A stretch of 18,806 nt of DNA from Candidatus Schekmanbacteria bacterium (GTDB lineage Bacteria; CSSED10-310; JACPHN01), in assembly GCA_016188575.1 (NCBI GenBank), contig JACPHN010000040.1:1-18806 (forward strand), given 5' to 3'. Shown in pieces: positions 851-18,086 of this stretch. Numbering within the stretch: the stretch's first letter is position 1; each line of letters starts with the position of its first letter. A program made the position numbers and the translations under genes. The notes beneath the pieces were generated by a model. It made no database searches. It had not been told where the DNA came from and worked only from the letters and a program-made list of their open reading frames with translations.

Positions 851-2133
851 TGGCATGCTGGTGCCATTGGCTGCGGTCCCCTATGCGGTGCCAAGTTGCG
901 CTACGCCATCGTCTCCGCTGCCCTCGGCCTCATCGGCGGCTTGTCCTTCAGCGCCGCGGCCTGGCGCCTTTCGTGCCGGGATCGCTTCATCGGCTGGACC
1001 GAGGCGGCACGCCGCGAACATCTGCAGAGCGTGGTGGGCAACAGCCGATTCCTCGTCCATCCTGGGGTGCGGTGTCCCAATCTCGCCTCTCATGCGCTCG
1101 GCATCGCCTTGCGGCAGATGGCCTCGGATTGGTCGACACGCCATGGCTACGCCCCCGTCCTCGTCGAAACGTTTATTGACGCGCGCGATCATGCCGGCAC
1201 CTGTTATGCCGCGGCCGGGTTTCAGTGGGTGGGGAAGACGGCAGGCCGAGGCCGCAAGGATCGGACTCACACCCAGGAAAAATCGCCCAAGTGGGTGTAT
1301 GTTCGCCCCTTGATCCCGGATTGGCGCAAGGCACTGGGGGTCGATCCCGGATATGTGCCCGCGGTCGACTTCGGCGCGCCTGCCGTGGATGACTGGGCAC
1401 GGCGGGAGCTCTGGGCGTACATGGGCAAGCTTCCGGTGGCGGGGCGGATCACGGTCGAGATTCCCGAGCGCGGTGCCCGGCCAGCCCGACAAGCGCTGCT
1501 GAGCGTACGCTTTGGCGCGATCACCATCGAGCCACCGGAGGCGCACGCGCAACTGAAGCCGATGGTGCTGTGCGCCGTATACGCCCGGGAGGTGTGGCCG
1601 GCGAAAAAAAGCGAGGCCGTCGACTGGATGCTGTTGACGACCGTGTCCACCGAAACCTTCGCGGAGGCGGTAGAAAGAATCCGATGGTATCGGGCGCGCT
1701 CGGAAATCGAAGTGTTTCATAGGACCCTCAAGGCGGGATGCTGCATCGAGGATCGCCAGCTCGAGGCCATCGATCGGGTCGCGGCTTGCCTGGCGATCGA
1801 CATGGTGGTTGCCTGGCACGTCCTGTATCTGCGGACACTGAGCAGAGAGCAGCCGGATACTCTGCGGCCGAGGTGCTGGAGGCCGACGCCTGCACGGTCC
1901 TGTCGGTTCTCGCCGCCAGGCGGCCCGGGCAAAGCGCGCCGGGCGTCCGGGAGGCGGTGCGAGAAATCGCCCGACTCGGCGGGTTCCTGGGGCGCAAGTG
2001 CGACGGCGAGCCCGGGGCCACAACGATCTGGCGCGGTCTGCTCATCCTCTGGGCGATGGTGGAAGGGTACCGGATGGCACAGGCGGCCACGGCTGGTACC
2101 CGCCGCACTCGAAAGGCGTGCTCGCCGCCATAG
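851..2133 (+). pseudogene. IS4-family transposase with DUF4338 (DruA-like) N-terminus; internally deleted and frameshifted
   Basis: From about 875 to 1305 the reading encodes a DUF4338 (DruA-type) domain: PLCGAKLRY, FSAAAWRL, RDRFIGW, a VVGNSRFLV-like strand, NLASHALG, GTCYAAAGF. Such domains are often found fused to IS4-family transposases. The frame then passes directly to the C-terminal half of a Tn5-like IS4 transposase (GRITVEIPERGARPARQA, WMLLTTV). The hallmark Y-(2)-R-(3)-E-(6)-K signature is complete at about 1687-1731 (YRARSEIEVFHRTLK). The DNA-binding part and the two catalytic aspartates expected between these parts are absent, so a large in-frame internal deletion is inferred. Near 1855-1862 a frameshift moves the coding sense to another frame, which continues with LGGFLGRKCDG and TIWRGLLILWAMVEG and stops at 2131-2133. 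The upstream boundary near 851 is approximate. No terminal repeats were recognised. Confidence 0.8.
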
Positions 2134-2272
2134 CCGGCGCGTGCTTGTGCTCGGAGCATTGTCGCCAAGACGACAGCCCCCGACCCAACCGCGAGCCTCA
2201 GCGAGCGGGGGAAGGGTAGAGGACTTCTGTGGTGATCCACTTGCCAAGCCCGCGTCTTCAACCCCCTTTTAG

Positions 2273-2455
2273 CGCACGGTCACGTCGCCAGGAGGGCAAA
2301 TCATGATTCACGGTCAGAAGAATGGGTTCGGCTTGTTCTAAGGCGTTTCCCAGCAATTCGACGCGACGAACGGCTGTGTTGCTCTCAGCAACGCAGACAT
2401 GGAGGAAGTGTGGAAAGCCGTGAGTCCCGGAACCCACATTGAGCTTCGCCCATAG
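2273..2455 (+). pseudogene. L,D-transpeptidase (YkuD domain) C-terminal remnant
   Basis: Reading from 2273, after an in-frame TAG at 2270-2272, the translation runs TVTSPGGQIMIHGQKNGFG, meets a TAA at 2339-2341, and resumes in the same frame with DATNGCVALSNADMEEVW to a final TAG at 2453-2455. This is the C-terminal half of a YkuD catalytic domain: the IHG histidine motif, then the catalytic cysteine in TNGCVALSN, ending in a GT-x-I-E-L-R-P tail. These periplasmic enzymes form 3-3 crosslinks in peptidoglycan or attach lipoproteins to it. The internal stop and the missing N-terminal half make it a dead remnant. The AGGAGG at 2290-2295 looks like a ribosome binding site for ATG 2303 but is explained as coding sequence (Pro-Gly-Gly-Gln). 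The stub ends 5 bp before an attC-like site, as expected for the cargo of an integron cassette. Confidence 0.8.
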
Positions 2456-2459
2456 CGCC

Positions 2460-2524
2460 CTCTAACCCTTCCAACCAGGGGACGCACTCCGGCCTCCGTG
2501 CGCCCCTCATGTCAAACGATCTTC
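2460..2524 (+). other. attC-like integron recombination site 1
   Basis: The site starts with an R''-like CTCTAAC (2460-2466) and ends with an R'-like box at 2518-2524 (GATCTTC, first crossover T changed to A). Between them is a folded arm: AGGGG (2477-2481), unpaired A2482, CGCAC (2483-2487), a 10-nt loop, GTGCG (2498-2502), CCCCT (2503-2507). A one-sided unpaired base in an otherwise perfect stem is the hallmark by which attC strands are recognised. The flanks CTAACCCTTCC and CTCATGTCAAACG resemble, from memory, attC sites of beta/gamma-proteobacterial chromosomal integrons. The site lies immediately after the L,D-transpeptidase remnant, in the orientation expected for the 3' end of a cassette. 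Confidence 0.7.
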
Positions 2525-2604
2525 CGACGCCTGCCGATCACAATCGGCGCAGCGCCACCCGCATCGTCTCCGTGCGCCCCTCATGTCAAACGTTCTTCCG
2601 CCGC
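2494..2604 (+). repeat. 37-bp direct repeat duplicating the attC 3' arm
   Basis: Positions 2494-2530 and 2568-2604 are direct copies, 35 of 37 identical, offset by 74 bp. Each copy contains the 3' arm of attC site 1 (CTCCGTGCGCCCCTCATG...), the crossover G and the first bases beyond it (TCTTCCG). The second copy has the intact GTT crossover triplet (2592-2594). The 5' arm of site 1 is not repeated, but GGCGCA (2546-2551) can pair with TGCGCC (2573-2578). The 74 bp between crossovers 2518 and 2592 would be a geneless mini-cassette or a recombination scar. There is no gene here. Confidence 0.75.
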
Positions 2605-2617
2605 GCTGATCCGCGCG

Positions 2618-2701
2618 GCAGAACAACCGGGTGCAGCGGACAGCGTCCTGCGGTAGTAAACTACCTCCGGGCGCTGCCGCTGACCCGGCGCCCCGTTCGA
2701 C
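2618..2701 (+). other. attC-like integron recombination site 2
   Basis: R''-like GCAGAAC (2618-2624) is followed by AA and then a left arm of CCGGGT (2627-2632), unpaired G2633, CAGCGG (2634-2639), unpaired A2640 and CAGCG (2641-2645). The right arm is a perfect match: CGCTG (2672-2676), CCGCTG (2677-2682), ACCCGG (2683-2688). R' is GTTCGAC (2695-2701). Two unpaired bases on the same strand of a 17-bp stem are the classical attC extrahelical-base pattern. The variable terminal loop (2646-2671) holds its own small hairpin, GGTAG/CTACC. The cassette that starts at 2696 carries the toxin-antitoxin pair. Confidence 0.8.
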
Positions 2702-2803
2702 GCACGAAAATATGAAGCGTAGAGGCGAATGCGAAGCGACAGCGACGACTCGAGGCGAAGTGCTGGGCGGGTGGGGCGGATCGGATGGGCAAGCAAGGGG
2801 CTT

Positions 2804-2875
2804 GGCCGAGAAACAGGGGTTCGGGCCGATAGAGTGGCCTTGGCCGAGAAACAGCAAGTCCAAGCCGAGAAGAAA
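2804..2875 (+). repeat. Degenerate ~20-bp tandem repeat, cluster A (upstream of the TA pair)
   Basis: Four units with core (G/A)GCCGA(G/T)A(G/A)A start at 2804, 2824, 2842 and 2863, spaced 20, 18 and 21 bp. Two of them share the exact core GGCCGAGAAACAG. The same family forms cluster B at 3813-3945, in the same orientation, on the other side of the toxin-antitoxin genes. The rest of 2702-3000 shows no convincing gene. The function is unknown; spacing close to two helical turns would suit protein binding, but that is inference. Confidence 0.7.
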
Positions 2876-3020
2876 GGGAGGTCGGAGCCGGCCACGGAAA
2901 CATGGAGCGCTTGCGTCACCACTCATGTCGCTCGACTGCCGAGCTTCTGGTAGAGTCTCTTCAATGGCATTGAGCTCAGGGAGCTACAGGCGATCATGCC
3001 GTAGCATGGGAGAGCCGGAG

Positions 3021-3233
3021 ATGGTCCATCTGACCTGGACACTTGAACAACTCAAGAGCCAGTCTCTCGAGAGAGTCCTCAGTGACGTGGCAGACCACCG
3101 TGCCGCTGTTACGGTCGTACTTCCTGACGGCCGCGAGGTGCTTCTGGAGCCGAAGCTGGCGCTCAAGCCACTACCTGAGCTCGAGGGCTACGTTCCTGAC
3201 GGCTGGAAGGATGCTCTGTATGCCGGAGAGTGA
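3021..3233 (+). CDS. Antitoxin of a PIN-type toxin-antitoxin pair
   Basis: This 70-residue protein begins MVHLTWTLEQLKSQSLERVL and has a short helix-strand N-terminus, the strand segment AVTVVLPDGREVLLEP, and an acidic proline-rich tail with PLPELEGYVPDGWKDALY. The size, layout and tight coupling to a PIN-domain gene mark it as the antitoxin that would bind and neutralise the toxin and probably repress the operon. No named antitoxin superfamily is certain; it looks like a Phd/VapB-like partner. ATG 3021 is preferred because GGGAGAG (3008-3014) lies 6 nt upstream; ATG 3006, five codons earlier, is the alternative. A much longer in-frame extension upstream runs through the repeats and the attC stem and is not credible. 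The stop lies inside the next gene (14-nt overlap). Confidence 0.75.
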   Translation: MVHLTWTLEQLKSQSLERVLSDVADHRAAVTVVLPDGREVLLEPKLALKPLPELEGYVPDGWKDALYAGE

Positions 3234-3729
3234 ACTCCGTCATACTGACAGCCGAGCGCTGCTGTTCGACGCGGGGATCTTCATTGGAGCGCTGCTGCGA
3301 GGTGATCCGCGTTATGCAGAGGCTCGGCCGATTGTGGAGCAAGCTCGCCGAGGTTTGCTGCCGGCATGTACCACGATCAGTATCCTGTGCGAGGTCTATG
3401 GCGCACTGACGTGGGAAAAGGCGGTGCCGCGGCACAGCCCTCGGGAGGCCGAAGAGGCTGCGCGGTTATTGATCGAGCCACCGTCGGCCATCGCGGTGCT
3501 GGGCGAAGAACCACATCTCGCGCTGAGGACTCTGGAGCTGGCCGTGCGACATGGCCTCACGGCTCGGCGGATCCACGACGCGAGGCACGCAGCCACTGCC
3601 TTGAGCGCCGGAGTCAAGGATGTGTACACCTACGACAGCGACGACTGGCTGCGCTTCGAGCCGGATGGACTTCAGGTCGTGGGACCACCATCGACGCTGG
3701 TGCGGCTCGGTCGCGTGCGAACTCCATGA
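3220..3729 (+). CDS. PIN-domain toxin (VapC-like ribonuclease)
   Basis: This 169-residue PIN-domain protein has all four acidic positions expected for the metal-dependent RNase site: Asp in LLFDAGIF (near residue 20), Glu in SILCEVYGALTWE, Asp in RRIHDARHAA, and Asp in DVYTYDSDDW. PIN toxins of this class cleave RNA, often tRNA or mRNA, in the cytoplasm when the antitoxin is lost. ATG 3220 has AAGGA 8 nt upstream and overlaps the antitoxin gene by 14 nt, consistent with translational coupling; ATG 3211 is an alternative. The pair forms a two-gene operon inside the cassette bounded by the attC-like sites at 2618-2701 and 4057-4118, and TA pairs are typical stabilising cargo of cassette arrays. 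The sequence appears intact. Confidence 0.85.
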   Translation: MPESELRHTDSRALLFDAGIFIGALLRGDPRYAEARPIVEQARRGLLPACTTISILCEVYGALTWEKAVPRHSPREAEEAARLLIEPPSAIAVLGEEPHLALRTLELAVRHGLTARRIHDARHAATALSAGVKDVYTYDSDDWLRFEPDGLQVVGPPSTLVRLGRVRTP

Positions 3730-3812
3730 GTCCGGTGCGATGCGCGCCGCCAAGATATCGGGTACGCACATCTCTCTCCGGTGCCCTGGACCATCCTCGA
3801 TAGACGGAGCTG

Positions 3813-3945
3813 GGCCGAGAAACAGGGGGCTCAAGCCGAAAAGCAGGGCTTCGGGCCGATAGACTGGCCGGCCCGAGAGATTGTAGAAGAAGGAGTGCCG
3901 ACAAGCAGGCCTCAGGCCGATAGACAGGGCTTGGCCGAGACCGTG
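3813..3945 (+). repeat. Degenerate ~20-bp tandem repeat, cluster B (downstream of the TA pair)
   Basis: Units related to cluster A start at 3813 (GGCCGAGAAACAG), 3834 (AGCCGAAAAGCAG), 3854 (GGCCGATAGACTG), 3896 (TGCCGACAAGCAG), 3915 (GGCCGATAGACAG) and 3933 (GGCCGAGACC), with a more degenerate unit near 3871. Spacing is mostly 18-21 bp. Orientation is the same as in cluster A. The stretch 3730-4056 otherwise shows no gene; it carries these repeats and then the next attC-like site. Confidence 0.7.
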
Positions 3946-4056
3946 GGCGCTGCCCCCGGACCCCCGCCAGAGGGCGAGCCCTCTGGACACCCGATATTGG
4001 GATCCGGGCGCAAGCCAAGCAATGGGATGATTCGGGGTGCTCGATTCGAAGACGGC

Positions 4057-4118
4057 GTCGAACAAGCCCATGCAGTTGACGCTCGCTTCGCTCGCGCAAC
4101 TGATGGGCGACGTTCTTC
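4057..4118 (+). other. attC-like integron recombination site 3
   Basis: R''-like GTCGAAC (4057-4063) and AA precede a left arm of GCCCAT (4066-4071), unpaired G4072, CAGTTG (4073-4078), unpaired A4079 and CGC (4080-4082). The right arm is GCG (4094-4096), CAACTG (4097-4102), ATGGGC (4103-4108), and R' is GTTCTTC (4112-4118). The loop is TCGCTTCGCTC. The positions and identities of the two unpaired bases (G then A, six pairs apart) match site 2 exactly although the paired bases differ; such conservation of structure rather than sequence is expected of attC sites. It closes the toxin-antitoxin cassette (2696-4112). Confidence 0.8.
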
Positions 4119-4141
4119 CGACGCTGCGCGTCGGAAGAACG
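4111..4141. repeat. Perfect 14-bp inverted repeat with 3-nt loop
   Basis: CGTTCTTCCGACGC (4111-4124) is followed by TGC and its exact reverse complement (4128-4141). Its left arm includes the R' box of attC site 3 and shares TCTTCCG(A/C)CGC with the sequences that follow the crossovers at 2518 and 2592. There is no T-tract, so an intrinsic terminator is unlikely. It may be the start of the next cassette or a second recombination structure. Confidence 0.6.
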
Positions 4142-4181
4142 GGGCGCCGGGCACGGTGCAAGTCCCGGATTCGAGACTCAG

Positions 4182-4206
4182 GAGGCGAGCAACAATGACT
4201 TGAACA
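4182..4206 (+). repeat. Left terminal inverted repeat of the ISAzo13-family element
   Basis: It begins GAGGCGAGCAACAAT. It pairs with 5359-5383 in inverse orientation, 21 of 25 positions matching, with the outer 11 bases identical. Confidence 0.75.
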
Positions 4207-4213
4207 CTTTTGG

Positions 4214-5330
4214 TCAAACTGCAGGGACTCTGGGTTTCAGCCGGTAGTTCAATTCCCGTGAAACTCGTCTCGTTCAACGACGAGGCCCGCGATCTCCTCG
4301 TTCGAAACCTCGACCCCTGCTGCATACATCCTCTCGTCAAGCGCTGCCTTGATCTCGCGCCCCTCGCAGGTCGTGGCATTGCCGATCAGATTCACCACGA
4401 CCTCCCGGCTGGTGAGCGGTCGCCCCCGCCAATTCGCGGTAATGTGGCAGAACATGCGGTGGTCGGCGGTGATCAGCAGGCGAGTGGCCTGTGGGTAGGC
4501 TGCCTCACCCATTTCCCGCCACCAGCGCCGCATGCTCTCCACGGCAAACTCGGCGGTGTCGTGGTCGATCCCGACGCTCACCCAGCCCGTGTTCATCGTC
4601 AAGTCGTAGACGCCATAAGGTGCGACCTTGCCCAGCTTGCGGTCGATGAAGTCATGCACCCGGACCGGTTCCGGGGTGCCGTGTGGCTGCCACTCTTTTC
4701 CGCCGTTCTTGAAATCGCCGATCAGCTCCTTCTTCTTGGTGTCAACCGACACCACCGGATCACCCGTTGCCTGGAGCTCCGCCACCGCCCTGGCAATGTG
4801 CTCGAACTGGCCATCCCGATCTTGATGCTGGCCACCCTCTCGCAGCTTGCGCGTGGATTGCAGGCTATACCCCATCTGGCCCAGCAGATTGCAGACAGTC
4901 CGTTGACTGACCTGATGCCCCCGTCGCTTCAGTTCCTGCGCCAATCGCCGCGTGCTCTTGCAGGTCCAGCGTAACGCTGACATCGGATCGCCGCGTGTCG
5001 TCGGTTCGACCAACGTGTCAAGGTCTGTCAGCAGACTATCGTCTTTGTCCGTGAGCTTCTTACGTCCACTGCCCGGAGCGCGGATCGGGCCTCGCCTGCC
5101 ATTCGCAATGGCGCTCTCCCCCTCCATCTCTGGGCCAAAGCCGGCTCCCCTCAGCTCGGCCAGCCCAGCATGAATTGTCGTACGTGACATGCCAGTTGCA
5201 GCGGCAACCGTGCTGACCCCACCTCGGCCCAGGCTACGCGCCTGCTCCGCCGCCCACATTCGCAGAGTGGCCTCATCGAGACGCGTGGAAAGCGCCTCAT
5301 ACTTGGCTCAGATCTTCGCGATATCACCAT
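4214..5330 (-). pseudogene. ISAzo13-family transposase with internal deletion, nonsense codon and frameshift
   Basis: The longest uninterrupted piece is 4249-5259. Family features include the N-terminal helix-turn-helix region (GRGGVSTVAAATGMSRTTI), GSGRKKLT, the catalytic strand DPVVSVDTKKKELIGDFKNGG with the first Asp, and HRMFCHITANWRGRPL. LLITAD is joined directly to HRMF at 4461/4462. Relatives carry about 45 residues there (GGGSNG through the SKWNKIE region), so the deletion removes the surroundings of the second Asp and the catalytic Glu while keeping the frame. At the 5' end, coding similarity continues upstream as DIAKI-stop-AKYEALSTRLDEA, with TGA at 5308-5310 where an Arg codon is expected. 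At the 3' end one base appears lost near 4255, since the other frame continues LNYRLKPRVPAV to a stop at 4214-4216. The gene is dead. Confidence 0.8.
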
Positions 5331-5358
5331 GACTTGATCATAGGGCAGAACCGTCGAT

Positions 5359-5383
5359 TGTTGATGTTATTTTTGCTCGCCTC
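5359..5383 (-). repeat. Right terminal inverted repeat of the ISAzo13-family element
   Basis: The minus strand reads GAGGCGAGCAAAAATAACAT and onward. It is the partner of 4182-4206 (21 of 25 matching) and marks the right end of the element. Confidence 0.75.
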
Positions 5384-8745: not shown

Positions 8746-11700
8746 CTACCGGCGCGTTCCCTGCAGCATCCGCGCTGCTTCCTCGGGAGGCGCGGAGAGC
8801 AACGTCTCGATCGACAGGTGTGCCAGCAAGCTGTCGTCCCACCCGACGTTGATTTCGCCGGACGTCGCCACAAGCTCTTCGTAGCGCCGATCGTAGGCCT
8901 TCAGGAGCCGCACTTTCGCCGCCACCGATTGCTCGGCGGCAAAGCGCAGATGTAGCAGGAGCAGCCGCGCCGTCCGCGGAGGCCCCGTAAACAACGGCAC
9001 GATGCAGATCGGCCGGTGATCCCACTGGCCGAGGCCGACAAAGATCGAACCCGAGCTGACCACGAGCCACTTGGTGCCCCGCAGCTTCCCCTGACTTTCT
9101 GTCCGCGACTTCATCTGCGCGGCAATCCCCGTCGCTCGCTCCTTCGTCACCCGCGCGTCCTGCCCCGCCCCGCCGTTTTGCTCCAGCCCGCTCACGGCGT
9201 AGACCGTCGACCCGGCGACCTCCTGCACCAATGCCGCCACGGCTTCCAGGATTTCCATGTTGTCCCGCCGCAGGTCGGCTGGCGTCGCGCCGAGCTCGGC
9301 AAAGAACGGCGCAAACAGGTCGGGAAAGGCCAGCGTTGTGCGCGAGATGCCAACGGTTACCGTCTTGGCCTGATGCTTGATGGCGTCGATGGGGCGGGAT
9401 AGCTCGTTGACCGCCCTGGTCAGGGACGCCTGCAGCAGGTCGACCAGGTTGAACGGGGTGCCATCGACGACGAAGTCCTCTGTCAGGTCATCCAGCGCGA
9501 GGCGGCCGGTCAGGTAGCGCAGCAGCAGGGTCAGCTCCGCACTGGTGCTCGCCTGCAGGGCGCCGTCCATCCGGCCCGAGCGCAGCTCGCGACTGATCCG
9601 CGTGGCGACCTCGGCCATGTCGCGGCGAATGCCGCGAATCGACCAGGGGAACTCGCCCCGCGCTTCGGCGCGTCGCACCGCCTCGGAGAGCTCGCCGCGG
9701 AAATGCTTCAGCATCTGCGCCTGACCGTCGATCATCAGCGCGGCGCTGTAGCCGAACAGGTGGCCGACCATGGTCGTGAGCACGAAGACGAGCTCGTCCG
9801 GCATTTCCGGGACCTGCACAACTGCCGCGCCGTAGTGCTCGAAGCGCTCGGCCCCGCGATTGGCGATCACCACGGGGACCGATTTGTGGGCCTTAAAGAT
9901 CGCGACTTCCTTTACCGCGTCGGTCAGGTTGCCGCCGTCCAGACCCGCGGCGCACACGATCACCAGCGGCTCCGACGACAAGTCGATGTGCTTCTTGTCC
10001 TCCAGATGGTCCACCGCGATGGACTTGTAGCACAGCTCGCTGAGCTTGATGCGGATCTCGCAGGCTGCGATATGGTTCTGGCCGCTGCCGGTGACGGCCC
10101 AGTGGCGTTTTTTCGCCGCGTGCTCGCGCGCCACGCGATCGATCGAGTCGCGCAGCGCGAGCACCCTGTCCATCGCCTCGGGTAGCCGCTCCAGCTCGTC
10201 CACGGCCTGCAGGCAGGTCGCGGCATCGATGGCGCCGCTGCGTTCGGCGAGGTAGAGCGCGACGAGGTACCCGGCGACGATTTGCGCGTAAAACGCTTTT
10301 GTCGACGCCACCGACATTTCGATGTCCCGGCCGTCGCTGGTATAGAACACGCCGTCGCACTTGAAGGCCAGCGCCGATTGGCGGCGATTGATGATGCCCA
10401 GCGCGCGCGCCCCACGGCCGCGTAGCAGGTCGACGGTGCGATTGGTGTCGGTGGTCGTGCCCGACTGAGAAATCGCGATGACCAGCGTATCGCGCATGTC
10501 GGGCGCGAGCTGGAAACCGGAAACCTCCGTCGCCTTCGCCGCCTCCACGGCGATGCCGAGCCGGCTTCCGAGGTAGCGGGCCATGATATAGGCGACGCCT
10601 TCCGCCGCAATCGCCGCCGTGCCTTGACCGATGCACAGCACCCGCCGGATTTGCCTGGCCCGGAGCGCCGCCGGCACCTCATCGGGGATCGTGCCGTGGT
10701 CCAGCATGAAGCGCACGCGCCGCGCCTGGCCGTCCGCGCCATTCCCCTCGATCCGATAGCGGCCGTCGAGCGTCTTTCGCACCGACGCGACCGACTCCGT
10801 TACTTCTTTCTCGAAGAAGTGCCGAAAACCGCCGATGTTGATGTCCCGCGTGGTGATTTCGCTGGGCGCCGGCGCGGCCGGCCCGAGCTCTCGGCCGCTG
10901 AAGGCGAAGCCGCCTGCTGCTCGCCACCCACTGGAGACGGCGTCGCCGTCGAGGACGAAGTACTGGCCGACCGAGGCCGGGTTGGCGGGGTCGCTGTGGC
11001 GCTCACCTTCGAGCTTCACGAAGCGGTCGGTCAGCTCGACGAGACCATACAGCTCCGACGCATAAGCGAGGCAATCCGGGCGCCAGGCGACGAACAGCGA
11101 CTGGCCGCTACCGCGCTGCGCCAGGTACGCTTTGCGCGGCTCGCGGCTGCCGTGGACGGCGATGGCGAACGAGCCTTCGAACTGGTTGACGGCGTGCCGA
11201 AAGGCGGGCTGCATGTCAGGTTTTTCGGTGTAGCGCTGGGCCACGGCGAGCGGAATGATCTTGGCGTCGGTGGTGATGCGCTCGCTGATGGTGGCACCGG
11301 TTTCGCGGCCAAAGTCGCGCAGCAGCTCCTGAAAGTTATCGATATCGCCGTTGAGCACGGCGCCGACGAAGGGGTCGGCGCGGGGCCACAGGCTGCACGA
11401 GTTGTCCATGGGGTGGCAGTTCTCCTCGCTGATTACCCCGTTGCTCGCCCAGCGCGTGTGGGCAATGGCGTTGAGCGCCGGGGCCGCGGCGGCCAGGGCG
11501 AGCAGCAGCGGATCGCCCTGGACCGCTCGGCGCAGCGCGCGCGCGTTGTCGCCCATCTCGCCGATCTCCGCCGCCACCTTGTAGGTCAGGACAATCGCGG
11601 CGCTGCCTGCGGGGAGCCGGCAGGTGCCACTCGTAAAATTCGCCAGCGCGGTGCTGCCCTCCAGGAGCTCGGCCAGATCGGCCTGCGCGGCTCGTTCGGC

Positions 11701-12261
11701 GACGAATTGATCGCGCGCCGCAGGCGAATCAAAAGAAAACAGCAGCGACAGCCCCGCGGAATCTCGGCCGCGGATTTCCAGGCGATTGAGATTGCGTAGC
11801 AGGTAACTGATCACCCAAAAAGAGCGCGCCGCCCGCGGGCTCAATTCGACGCCACGACCACCGGCGAGCTCGCGGATGTCGTCGATGACGCCGAGCACGT
11901 CGTGCTCGATGCGCCACTGCAGATCCTGGCAGAGCACGCGTTCCTGATTGAGCGCCTCGATCTCTCGGAAGCCCGCCGCCTGCTCGCGCCGCGCCACCAG
12001 GCGCTCATACAGCCGCGAAAGGAATGCGGCGGCCTCCCGTAGCAGCGCGCTGTGATGCCAGCTCGCCCCCGCTTCATACGGGCCGTCACACAGGCAAATC
12101 CGCTCGAGCGAGCTGCGCGCGTGTCGCAGGAGCTCGCCGCAGCTTCCGGCCTGCTCCGCGGCGGCGAGCGCCTCCCCGCACAGGCGGTTCACCGCTTCCG
12201 GCGAGACCGGCTCGGCTGGCTTCAGGATCGCCGCCGAGAGGATTCCGACGATGCCACACAT
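8746..12261 (-). CDS. Giant GlmS-like glutamine amidotransferase / double-SIS protein
   Basis: 1171 residues, against about 610 for GlmS, which makes glucosamine-6-phosphate from fructose-6-phosphate and glutamine. The N-terminal MCGIVGIL supplies the class II glutaminase nucleophile Cys2; RGRDSAGL (D167), HTRWAS (H268), LNGDIDNF and TTDAKII complete that domain. SIS1 has SQSGTTTDTN (598-607) and a STKAF motif. SIS2 keeps, in register with E. coli E481, K485, E488, K503 and H504, the residues E735, K739, E742, K757 and H758. It differs by a ~135-residue insertion after the first strand, ~55 more residues before HTRW, no clear AKSVTVE tail, and a ~300-residue C-terminal extension of unknown fold. 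GGAG lies 7 nt before ATG 12261. The gene follows a SpoIIM-family gene by 18 nt. Activity is likely but the product is not proven. Confidence 0.85.
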   Translation of the reverse strand: MCGIVGILSAAILKPAEPVSPEAVNRLCGEALAAAEQAGSCGELLRHARSSLERICLCDGPYEAGASWHHSALLREAAAFLSRLYERLVARREQAAGFREIEALNQERVLCQDLQWRIEHDVLGVIDDIRELAGGRGVELSPRAARSFWVISYLLRNLNRLEIRGRDSAGLSLLFSFDSPAARDQFVAERAAQADLAELLEGSTALANFTSGTCRLPAGSAAIVLTYKVAAEIGEMGDNARALRRAVQGDPLLLALAAAAPALNAIAHTRWASNGVISEENCHPMDNSCSLWPRADPFVGAVLNGDIDNFQELLRDFGRETGATISERITTDAKIIPLAVAQRYTEKPDMQPAFRHAVNQFEGSFAIAVHGSREPRKAYLAQRGSGQSLFVAWRPDCLAYASELYGLVELTDRFVKLEGERHSDPANPASVGQYFVLDGDAVSSGWRAAGGFAFSGRELGPAAPAPSEITTRDINIGGFRHFFEKEVTESVASVRKTLDGRYRIEGNGADGQARRVRFMLDHGTIPDEVPAALRARQIRRVLCIGQGTAAIAAEGVAYIMARYLGSRLGIAVEAAKATEVSGFQLAPDMRDTLVIAISQSGTTTDTNRTVDLLRGRGARALGIINRRQSALAFKCDGVFYTSDGRDIEMSVASTKAFYAQIVAGYLVALYLAERSGAIDAATCLQAVDELERLPEAMDRVLALRDSIDRVAREHAAKKRHWAVTGSGQNHIAACEIRIKLSELCYKSIAVDHLEDKKHIDLSSEPLVIVCAAGLDGGNLTDAVKEVAIFKAHKSVPVVIANRGAERFEHYGAAVVQVPEMPDELVFVLTTMVGHLFGYSAALMIDGQAQMLKHFRGELSEAVRRAEARGEFPWSIRGIRRDMAEVATRISRELRSGRMDGALQASTSAELTLLLRYLTGRLALDDLTEDFVVDGTPFNLVDLLQASLTRAVNELSRPIDAIKHQAKTVTVGISRTTLAFPDLFAPFFAELGATPADLRRDNMEILEAVAALVQEVAGSTVYAVSGLEQNGGAGQDARVTKERATGIAAQMKSRTESQGKLRGTKWLVVSSGSIFVGLGQWDHRPICIVPLFTGPPRTARLLLLHLRFAAEQSVAAKVRLLKAYDRRYEELVATSGEINVGWDDSLLAHLSIETLLSAPPEEAARMLQGTRR

Positions 12262-18042: not shown

Positions 18043-18086
18043 GTTCCGGTATTGGCGCGCGATAAATCGCGCGCCAATACCGGAAC
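18043..18086. terminator. Perfect 44-nt inverted repeat (21-bp arms, 2-nt loop) between convergent genes
   Basis: GTTCCGGTATTGGCGCGCGA (18043-18062) plus one T is mirrored exactly across a central AA to 18086. It lies 48 nt after the stop of the alpha-2-macroglobulin gene and 77 nt after the stop of the converging minus-strand gene. The position suits a bidirectional terminator, but neither side has a T-tract and the perfection and length are unusual. No gene is credible in 17995-18163. Confidence 0.65.

What the first reader, a model, noticed from the sequence alone, without database searches (positions are those of the whole stretch)
2460..4118. Integrase-less cluster of attC-like sites forming a small cassette array
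Three sites in the same orientation fold into one-sided bulged stems with RYYYAAC-like and GTTRRRY-like ends. Sites 2 and 3 share the same architecture (six pairs, unpaired G, six pairs, unpaired A, more pairs) although their paired bases differ, which is structural rather than sequence conservation. Cargo fits integron cassettes: an L,D-transpeptidase stub right before site 1, mini-cassettes, and a toxin-antitoxin pair before site 3. No integrase is in the window.
Basis: partly seen in the sequence, partly recalled or inferred. Interest (0 to 1): 0.75.

Follow-up and report, generated by a model that had tools for sequence, protein, structure and literature searches.

The report
Integron cassette array with repeated minicassette
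This stretch holds a small array of integron gene cassettes cut off from any integrase gene, and one of its recombination sites turns out to be a truncated copy of a gene-free mini-cassette that is scattered about 40 times through the same genome and has look-alikes, with the same folded shape but different letters, in integrons of unrelated bacteria.

Summary
A covariance model built only from attC sites on other contigs scores site 3 (4056-4118) at 59.3 bits and site 2 (2617-2701) at 40.6-44.5 bits; site 1 is not detected and looks like a decayed attC. The 1,417-bp PIN toxin-antitoxin cassette between sites 2 and 3 is intact by the integron rule: its first bases are complementary to the R'' box of its own attC. 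The contig carries no integrase and the array is flanked by insertion sequences, so it is a CALIN, but the genome has two full-length IntI genes and about 56 attC sites.

Site 2 proved more interesting than the array. It is the 3' part of a ~152-bp ORF-less cassette with 44 full or partial copies on 28 contigs, bounded at G|TT, inserted after unrelated attC sites and once at an attI. It folds as a start hairpin plus a three-way junction. The same layout, with diverged sequence, occurs in Nitrospira and several other lineages, repeatedly directly at attI. I read it as a non-autonomous, IntI-mobilised minicassette. I found no description of it. IntI dependence and function are inferred, not shown.

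The parts
2298..2459 (+). Broken L,D-transpeptidase remnant (frame ...TNGCVALSNADMEEVWKAVSPGTHIELRP* with an in-frame stop near 2340); cargo of the first, truncated cassette
   Evidence: translation; family recognised from motif only, not tested with a profile
2460..2524 (+). Site 1: decayed attC-like site; stem AGGGG-A-CGCAC/GTGCG-CCCCT, crossover GTT changed to GAT; followed by a degenerate minicassette start (CTTCCGACGC)
   Evidence: 6.2 bits, not a hit; shares flanking boxes with C56:80620-80698
2568..2592 (+). Second copy of the 3' half of site 1, with an intact G|TT at 2592|2593
   Evidence: direct repeat D2, 95% identity
2593..2695 (+). 5'-truncated copy of the ORF-less minicassette (matches positions 50-155 of the ~155-nt unit at 98%)
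2618..2701 (+). Site 2: attC of the minicassette; extrahelical G2633 and A2640; 2-nt and 6-nt unpaired central spacers; R' GTTCGAC
2696..4112 (+). Complete ORF cassette; start GTTCGACGC is complementary to its own R'' GCGTCGAAC
3021..3233 (+). Small ORF (70 aa), putative antitoxin, overlapping the PIN gene by 14 nt
   Evidence: translation; no family match
3220..3729 (+). PIN-domain (VapC-like) toxin gene, 169 aa
   Evidence: Pfam PF01850 E 2.1e-11
4057..4118 (+). Site 3: canonical attC of the toxin-antitoxin cassette; extrahelical G4072 and A4079; R' GTTCTTC
   Evidence: (59.3 bits)
4112..4153 (+). 5' part of a second minicassette copy (start hairpin GTTCTTCCGACGC-TGC-GCGTCGGAAGAAC plus GGGGCGCCGGGCA), cut off at about 4153
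   Evidence: C142_4112 q1-42
896..2272 (+). Transposase-like ORF (IS4-type, DruA-like N terminus) bounding the array upstream
4182..5383 (-). ISAzo13-type insertion sequence bounding the array downstream, with 25-nt terminal inverted repeats
   Evidence: NCBIfam NF033519 430 bits; inverted repeat I15

Best explanation
The window carries a small CALIN bounded by insertion sequences: a decayed attC, a truncated minicassette (site 2), an intact PIN toxin-antitoxin cassette (attC = site 3), and the 5' part of another minicassette. The minicassette is a ~152-bp ORF-less integron cassette. It starts with a hairpin formed by its own start and R'' box, followed by an inverted, internally shortened copy of its attC and then the full attC, so a single strand folds as a hairpin plus a three-way junction. 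It is inserted at G|TT of attC sites and of attI, which is the product expected of IntI using the minicassette's attC. Most likely it is a non-autonomous element moved by the IntI enzymes encoded elsewhere in the genome; that it spreads as a passenger rather than serving the host is inferred.
For: attC identity: R1 hits at sites 2 and 3; R1 also finds attC arrays beside intI genes of other phyla, 49 of 51 hits on the intI strand. Cassette rule: in 16 ORF-type cassettes the start matches the R'' of the same cassette at 8.6 of 11 positions against 6.3 when shuffled, 0 of 10,000. Genome has IntI at C140 (477 bits) and C88 (424 bits) plus remnants. Minicassette: 44 copies on 28 contigs; 5' ends abut the G of unrelated attC ends and 3' ends are mostly GTT plus different next cassettes; in C197 it sits exactly at an attI whose counterpart in C140 holds an ORF cassette instead. 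Same pattern in another lineage, G369: once at attI beside IntI, twice after attC sites. Fold z -12.8 and -14.8 in own genome, -7.9 in Nitrospira, -5.7 to -11 in other lineages; own plus Nitrospira pairs: 9 of 33 changed on both sides; model R3, trained without own or Nitrospira sequences, finds both.
Against: No recombination was observed; IntI dependence is inferred from boundaries. Some copies lie in non-attC contexts (C7, C159, C162, C43:38663) and many are truncated. R3 training sequences were found with R2, which was trained on own sequences, so the two models are not fully independent. Several Nitrospira hits fold no better than shuffles (z -1 to -2.5). Nothing shows whether the element is selfish or useful. 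No relative close enough to show empty sites was found in the held genomes.
Confidence: 0.75

Rival explanations
1. The minicassette is a regulatory or insulating cassette kept for the host: as a promoter, terminator or structural barrier placed between ORF cassettes and behind attI.
For: Gene-less cassettes of Vibrio carry promoters (PMC11014356). It lies between ORF cassettes far more often than next to itself (12 of 23 ORF-type attC are followed by it against 1 of 20 minicassette attC, Fisher p 8.5e-4) and sits first behind attI in several genomes.
Against: It is GC-rich and nearly all in stems, with no obvious AT-rich -10 region or T-run (read from the sequence, no scan run). Tandem copies could be lost by homologous recombination, which alone would give the alternation. 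Many copies are truncated, as expected of unselected elements.
Confidence: 0.2
2. The minicassette is a transposon relic (MITE- or REP-like) moved by a transposase and only resembles an attC.
For: Multi-copy, short, palindromic, dispersed over 28 contigs.
Against: Borders fall at G|TT of attC or attI sites with different flanks each time, no target-site duplication was noticed, and the 3' end is itself an attC recognised by a model made from other cassettes.
Confidence: 0.08
3. The array is not a true CALIN but part of a larger integron broken by assembly.
For: The window is a whole contig that starts inside a transposase fragment, and IntI genes lie on other contigs.
Against: The array is bounded on both sides by non-cassette sequence inside the contig (IS4/DruA-like ORF upstream, ISAzo13 and other genes downstream), and about 20 similar small clusters lie on other contigs, many long.
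Confidence: 0.1
4. The stems are chance hairpins in GC-rich DNA.
For: The region is GC-rich and site 1 alone is weak.
Against: E-values of 1e-13 and 1e-8 at sites 3 and 2 with a model from other contigs, the start/R'' rule, and attC-specific asymmetric bulges.
Confidence: 0.02

Closest known systems
CALIN (cluster of attC sites lacking integron-integrase; IntegronFinder, PMC9024848)
   Same: At least two attC sites in one orientation with an ORF cassette and no integrase on the contig.
   Different: Only two model-confirmed sites; one belongs to a dispersed repeat cassette; intact IntI genes elsewhere in the genome.
Gene-less (ORF-less) integron cassettes of Vibrio and the oral metagenome (PMC11014356, PMC6557892)
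   Same: Cassettes without an ORF, bounded by attC sites.
   Different: Here the cassette is essentially only an attC plus an inverted shortened attC, in about 40 dispersed copies, with a conserved three-way-junction fold across lineages; no promoter tested.
Same-direction chromosomal integrons of Treponema (PMC3607928)
   Same: intI is transcribed toward attI and in the direction of the cassettes, as at C140, C88 and L156.
   Different: Genome of another, sparsely sampled phylum with many scattered clusters.
Cassette insertion at non-classical attG sites (Loot et al. 2024, doi 10.1038/s41564-023-01548-y, known here only as cited in PMC12901181)
   Same: Cassettes found outside the primary array; a few copies here lie in non-attC flanks.
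   Different: Here most full copies sit after attC sites, and attG use was not tested.

Membership tests
attC site (sites 2 and 3) | R''/R' boxes of type RYYYAAC / GTTRRRY | tested here: met
   GCAGAAC/GTTCGAC and GTCGAAC/GTTCTTC; the AAC and GTT cores are exact, the outer letters fit only loosely
attC site (sites 2 and 3) | L''/L' stem with extrahelical bases only on the L'' arm (PMC2727003) | tested here: met
   G and A extra on the 5' arm in both sites
attC site (sites 2 and 3) | Unpaired central spacer and variable terminal structure (PMC2727003) | tested here: met
   2-nt and 3- or 6-nt spacers, differing loops
attC site (sites 2 and 3) | Match to an attC covariance model | tested here: met
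   own model R1; the IntegronFinder model was not available
attC site (site 1) | Match to an attC covariance model | tested here: not met
   6.2 bits, E 9.4; crossover GTT lost
attC site (sites 2 and 3) | Recombination by IntI on the folded bottom strand | not testable with these tools
   needs an assay
Integron gene cassette (2696-4112) | Cassette start complementary to R'' of its own attC | tested here: met
   9 positions in a row from GTT outward
CALIN | Two or more attC sites, no integrase nearby (PMC9024848) | tested here: met
   sites 2 and 3; no IntI on the 18.8-kb contig
Integron (complete) | intI plus attI with the array | tested here: not met
   absent from this contig; IntI present on C140 and C88, attI read at C140
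Gene-less integron cassette (minicassette) | Bounded by G|TT, carries an attC, no coding sequence | tested here: met
   (no start-to-stop ORF seen in the unit)
Gene-less integron cassette (minicassette) | Promoter activity, as in Vibrio | not tested
   no expression data

The most novel reading that the evidence does not exclude
The ORF-less minicassette is a distinct class of integron-dependent mobile element found across several bacterial phyla: its strand can switch between a canonical attC and a more stable three-way junction (predicted 7 kcal/mol apart), it spreads to attI and attC sites with borrowed IntI, and by seeding attC sites around genes it could turn ordinary genes into cassettes, which would bear on the open question of how cassettes arise.
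Probability: 0.2. Interest if true: 0.85.

Novelty: new variant of a known kind. Interest (0 to 1): 0.6.

Why it matters
The array itself is a known kind. The repeat inside it is a gene-free cassette in about 40 copies whose fold is kept while its letters change, seen in the genome studied, Nitrospira and several other lineages, and repeatedly as the first cassette at attI. If it is moved by IntI alone it is a minimal parasite of the integron system and a natural test case for how attC sites spread through chromosomes and how cassettes outside arrays (CALINs) arise.

Tried and rejected
Rfam, whole window at gathering thresholds: no match; Rfam on six element loci at E<=0.1: only sub-threshold noise. 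Scan of genome contigs for an exact core of the minicassette: nothing (that tool may leave out this genome); DNA search of 60 relatives: only the own genome, hence the structure models. First attC alignments (A1, A2) were misaligned by long loops and dropped for A4; A3 held a made-up control sequence and was not used. A8 (four lineages) misaligned G329 and was replaced by A9. The first fold used a mistyped C56 sequence and is not cited; only its second entry (site 1) is. A profile test of the L,D-transpeptidase remnant failed on its stop codons. Promoter and terminator scans were not run on the element. Literature searches for repeated, inverted or attC-only minicassettes found none described; most subscription papers are not covered.

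Full report
Setting. The window is a complete contig (C142, 18,806 bases) of a 9.2-Mb genome in 275 contigs, 94% complete; its nearest held relatives share only its phylum. Organism names are not given for it.

Check of the sites. Sites 2 and 3 have the stated anatomy. I wrote a simple attC finder (AAC, stem with single extra bases only on the 5' arm, GTT); at score 13 or more it gave 32 sites in the fetched loci and none in 625 kb of Markov shuffles (the loci were chosen for containing such sites, so the real count is enriched). From eight sites on other contigs I built covariance model R1; its stem shows 9 of 17 pairs with changes on both sides, 0 of 500 shuffles. R1 finds site 3 at 59.3 bits and site 2 at 40.6 bits in the window, nothing else above 14.5 bits, and 56 matches in the genome, in one orientation within each cluster. 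Applied to 80 loci around IntI relatives from named genomes of many phyla, R1 finds 51 further sites, 49 on the intI strand and most downstream of intI, so it is an attC model and not a model of a local repeat.

Site 1 is not found by R1. It shares both flanking boxes with a detected attC at C56:80620-80698 while the stem letters differ and still pair, and its crossover is mutated. I treat it as a decayed attC.

Cassette integrity. In integrons the R'' of a cassette's attC matches the start of the same cassette. For 16 ORF-type cassettes of this genome the match is 8.6 of 11 positions against 6.3 after shuffling, 0 of 10,000. The cassette 2696-4112 in the window matches over 9 positions in a row (GTTCGACGC / GCGTCGAAC). 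It holds a PIN-domain toxin (PF01850, E 2.1e-11) overlapping a 70-aa partner with no family match.

Integrase. TIGR02249 matches over cut-off at C140:2586-3530 and C88:9829-10764, with remnants on other contigs. In both, attC sites lie downstream in the same direction, as in Treponema (PMC3607928). attI can be read by comparison...TTATGCGGATCCGTCTAATTGTTG|TTC at C140 with an ORF cassette, and the same site at C197, where only an IntI C-terminal scrap remains, with the minicassette.

The minicassette. Site 2 with its 5' flank matches about 40 other places, most at 81-97% identity. Full copies read G|TTCTTCCGACGC-TGC-GCGTCGGAAGAAC-GGGGCGCCGGG-CAAAA-CCCGGTTGTTCCGCCGCGC-...-attC-CCCCG|TT. There are 44 full or partial copies on 28 contigs, 18 nearly full. 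All 21 copies aligned with a 5' end begin with GTTC right behind the end of another attC, an attI or, in a few cases, unrelated DNA, and the 3' flank is a different cassette start each time. The part GGAAGAACGGGGCGCCGGG...CCCGGTTGTTCCGCCGCGC is the reverse complement of the element's own attC with the inner stem removed. Twelve of 23 ORF-type attC sites are followed by a minicassette start but only 1 of 20 minicassette attC sites (Fisher p 8.5e-4); loss of tandem copies could explain this too. In the window, site 3 (and site 1 in decayed form) is followed by a minicassette start, and site 2 is a copy lacking the inverted 5' part.

Fold. The full unit folds as a start hairpin plus a three-way junction, z -12.8 (top strand) and -14.8 (bottom). 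Forcing the canonical attC costs about 7 kcal/mol on either strand, so two competing forms are predicted.

Other genomes. The top-ranked IntI relative, in a Nitrospira MAG (L156, 62% identity), has three copies of an equivalent element on its contig, one at attI, and a fourth elsewhere in that genome; it folds the same way (z -7.9). Across five own and two Nitrospira copies 9 of 33 pairs are changed on both sides. Model R2 from these finds elements in 10 further genomes among Nitrospira relatives, several of them decayed, at least seven directly behind an attI-like motif, and in unrelated lineages G064, G369, G038, G329, G245 and G015, with fold z from -5.7 to -11. In G369 copies lie at attI beside IntI and after two attC sites, the same layout as here. 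Model R3, made only from G064, G369 and G038, finds the own copies (58.8 bits, E 2e-7) and the Nitrospira ones (44.7 bits, E 6e-5). Its training set came from R2, so it is supporting rather than independent evidence. The element is uncommon: 3 of 388 genomes in one sample with R3, 11 of 148 Nitrospira relatives with R2. Shorter two-hairpin forms of 57-63 nt exist (G076, G146).

What is shown and what is inferred. Shown: attC identity of sites 2 and 3, the cassette rule, IntI genes in the genome, the copy number and G|TT borders, the predicted fold and its conservation with changed letters. Inferred: movement by IntI, the selfish role, competition between folds in the cell, and shared ancestry across phyla (rather than repeated origin). 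Not tested: any function. Some handles are the same genome under two numbers (identical places), so lineages were counted once.

Noticed in passing
L029:2583-3965 (-), L030:9370-10773 (+): Both IntI proteins carry about 145-150 extra N-terminal residues before the SAM-like domain with no Pfam match; part of the extension is shared with the Nitrospira and Spirochaete relatives.
   Followed up: no
window 2803-2877 and 3798-3940: Repeated motifs GGCCGAGAAACAG and GGGCCGATAGA flank the toxin-antitoxin genes inside the cassette; in the fetched loci they occur only here.
   Followed up: partly
window 4182-5383: ISAzo13-type insertion sequence with terminal inverted repeats, inserted about 29 nt behind the truncated minicassette.
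   Followed up: partly
window 18043-18086: Perfect 21-bp inverted repeat with a 2-nt loop near the contig end.
   Followed up: no
window 896-2272: One ORF matches both DruA (N-terminal part) and IS4-family transposase models.
   Followed up: no
window 8746-12261: Very long ORF (1,171 aa) whose translation looks like a glucosamine-6-phosphate synthase (GlmS) fused to further sequence; no family search was run.
   Followed up: no
L248 and L246 (G146, G076): 57-63-nt cassettes consisting of two hairpins bounded by GTT, possibly the minimal form of the minicassette.
   Followed up: partly
G000:C43:38817-42321: A 3.5-kb stretch lies between two minicassettes without an ORF-type attC detected in between, so recombination between the two copies could release it as a cassette.
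   Followed up: no
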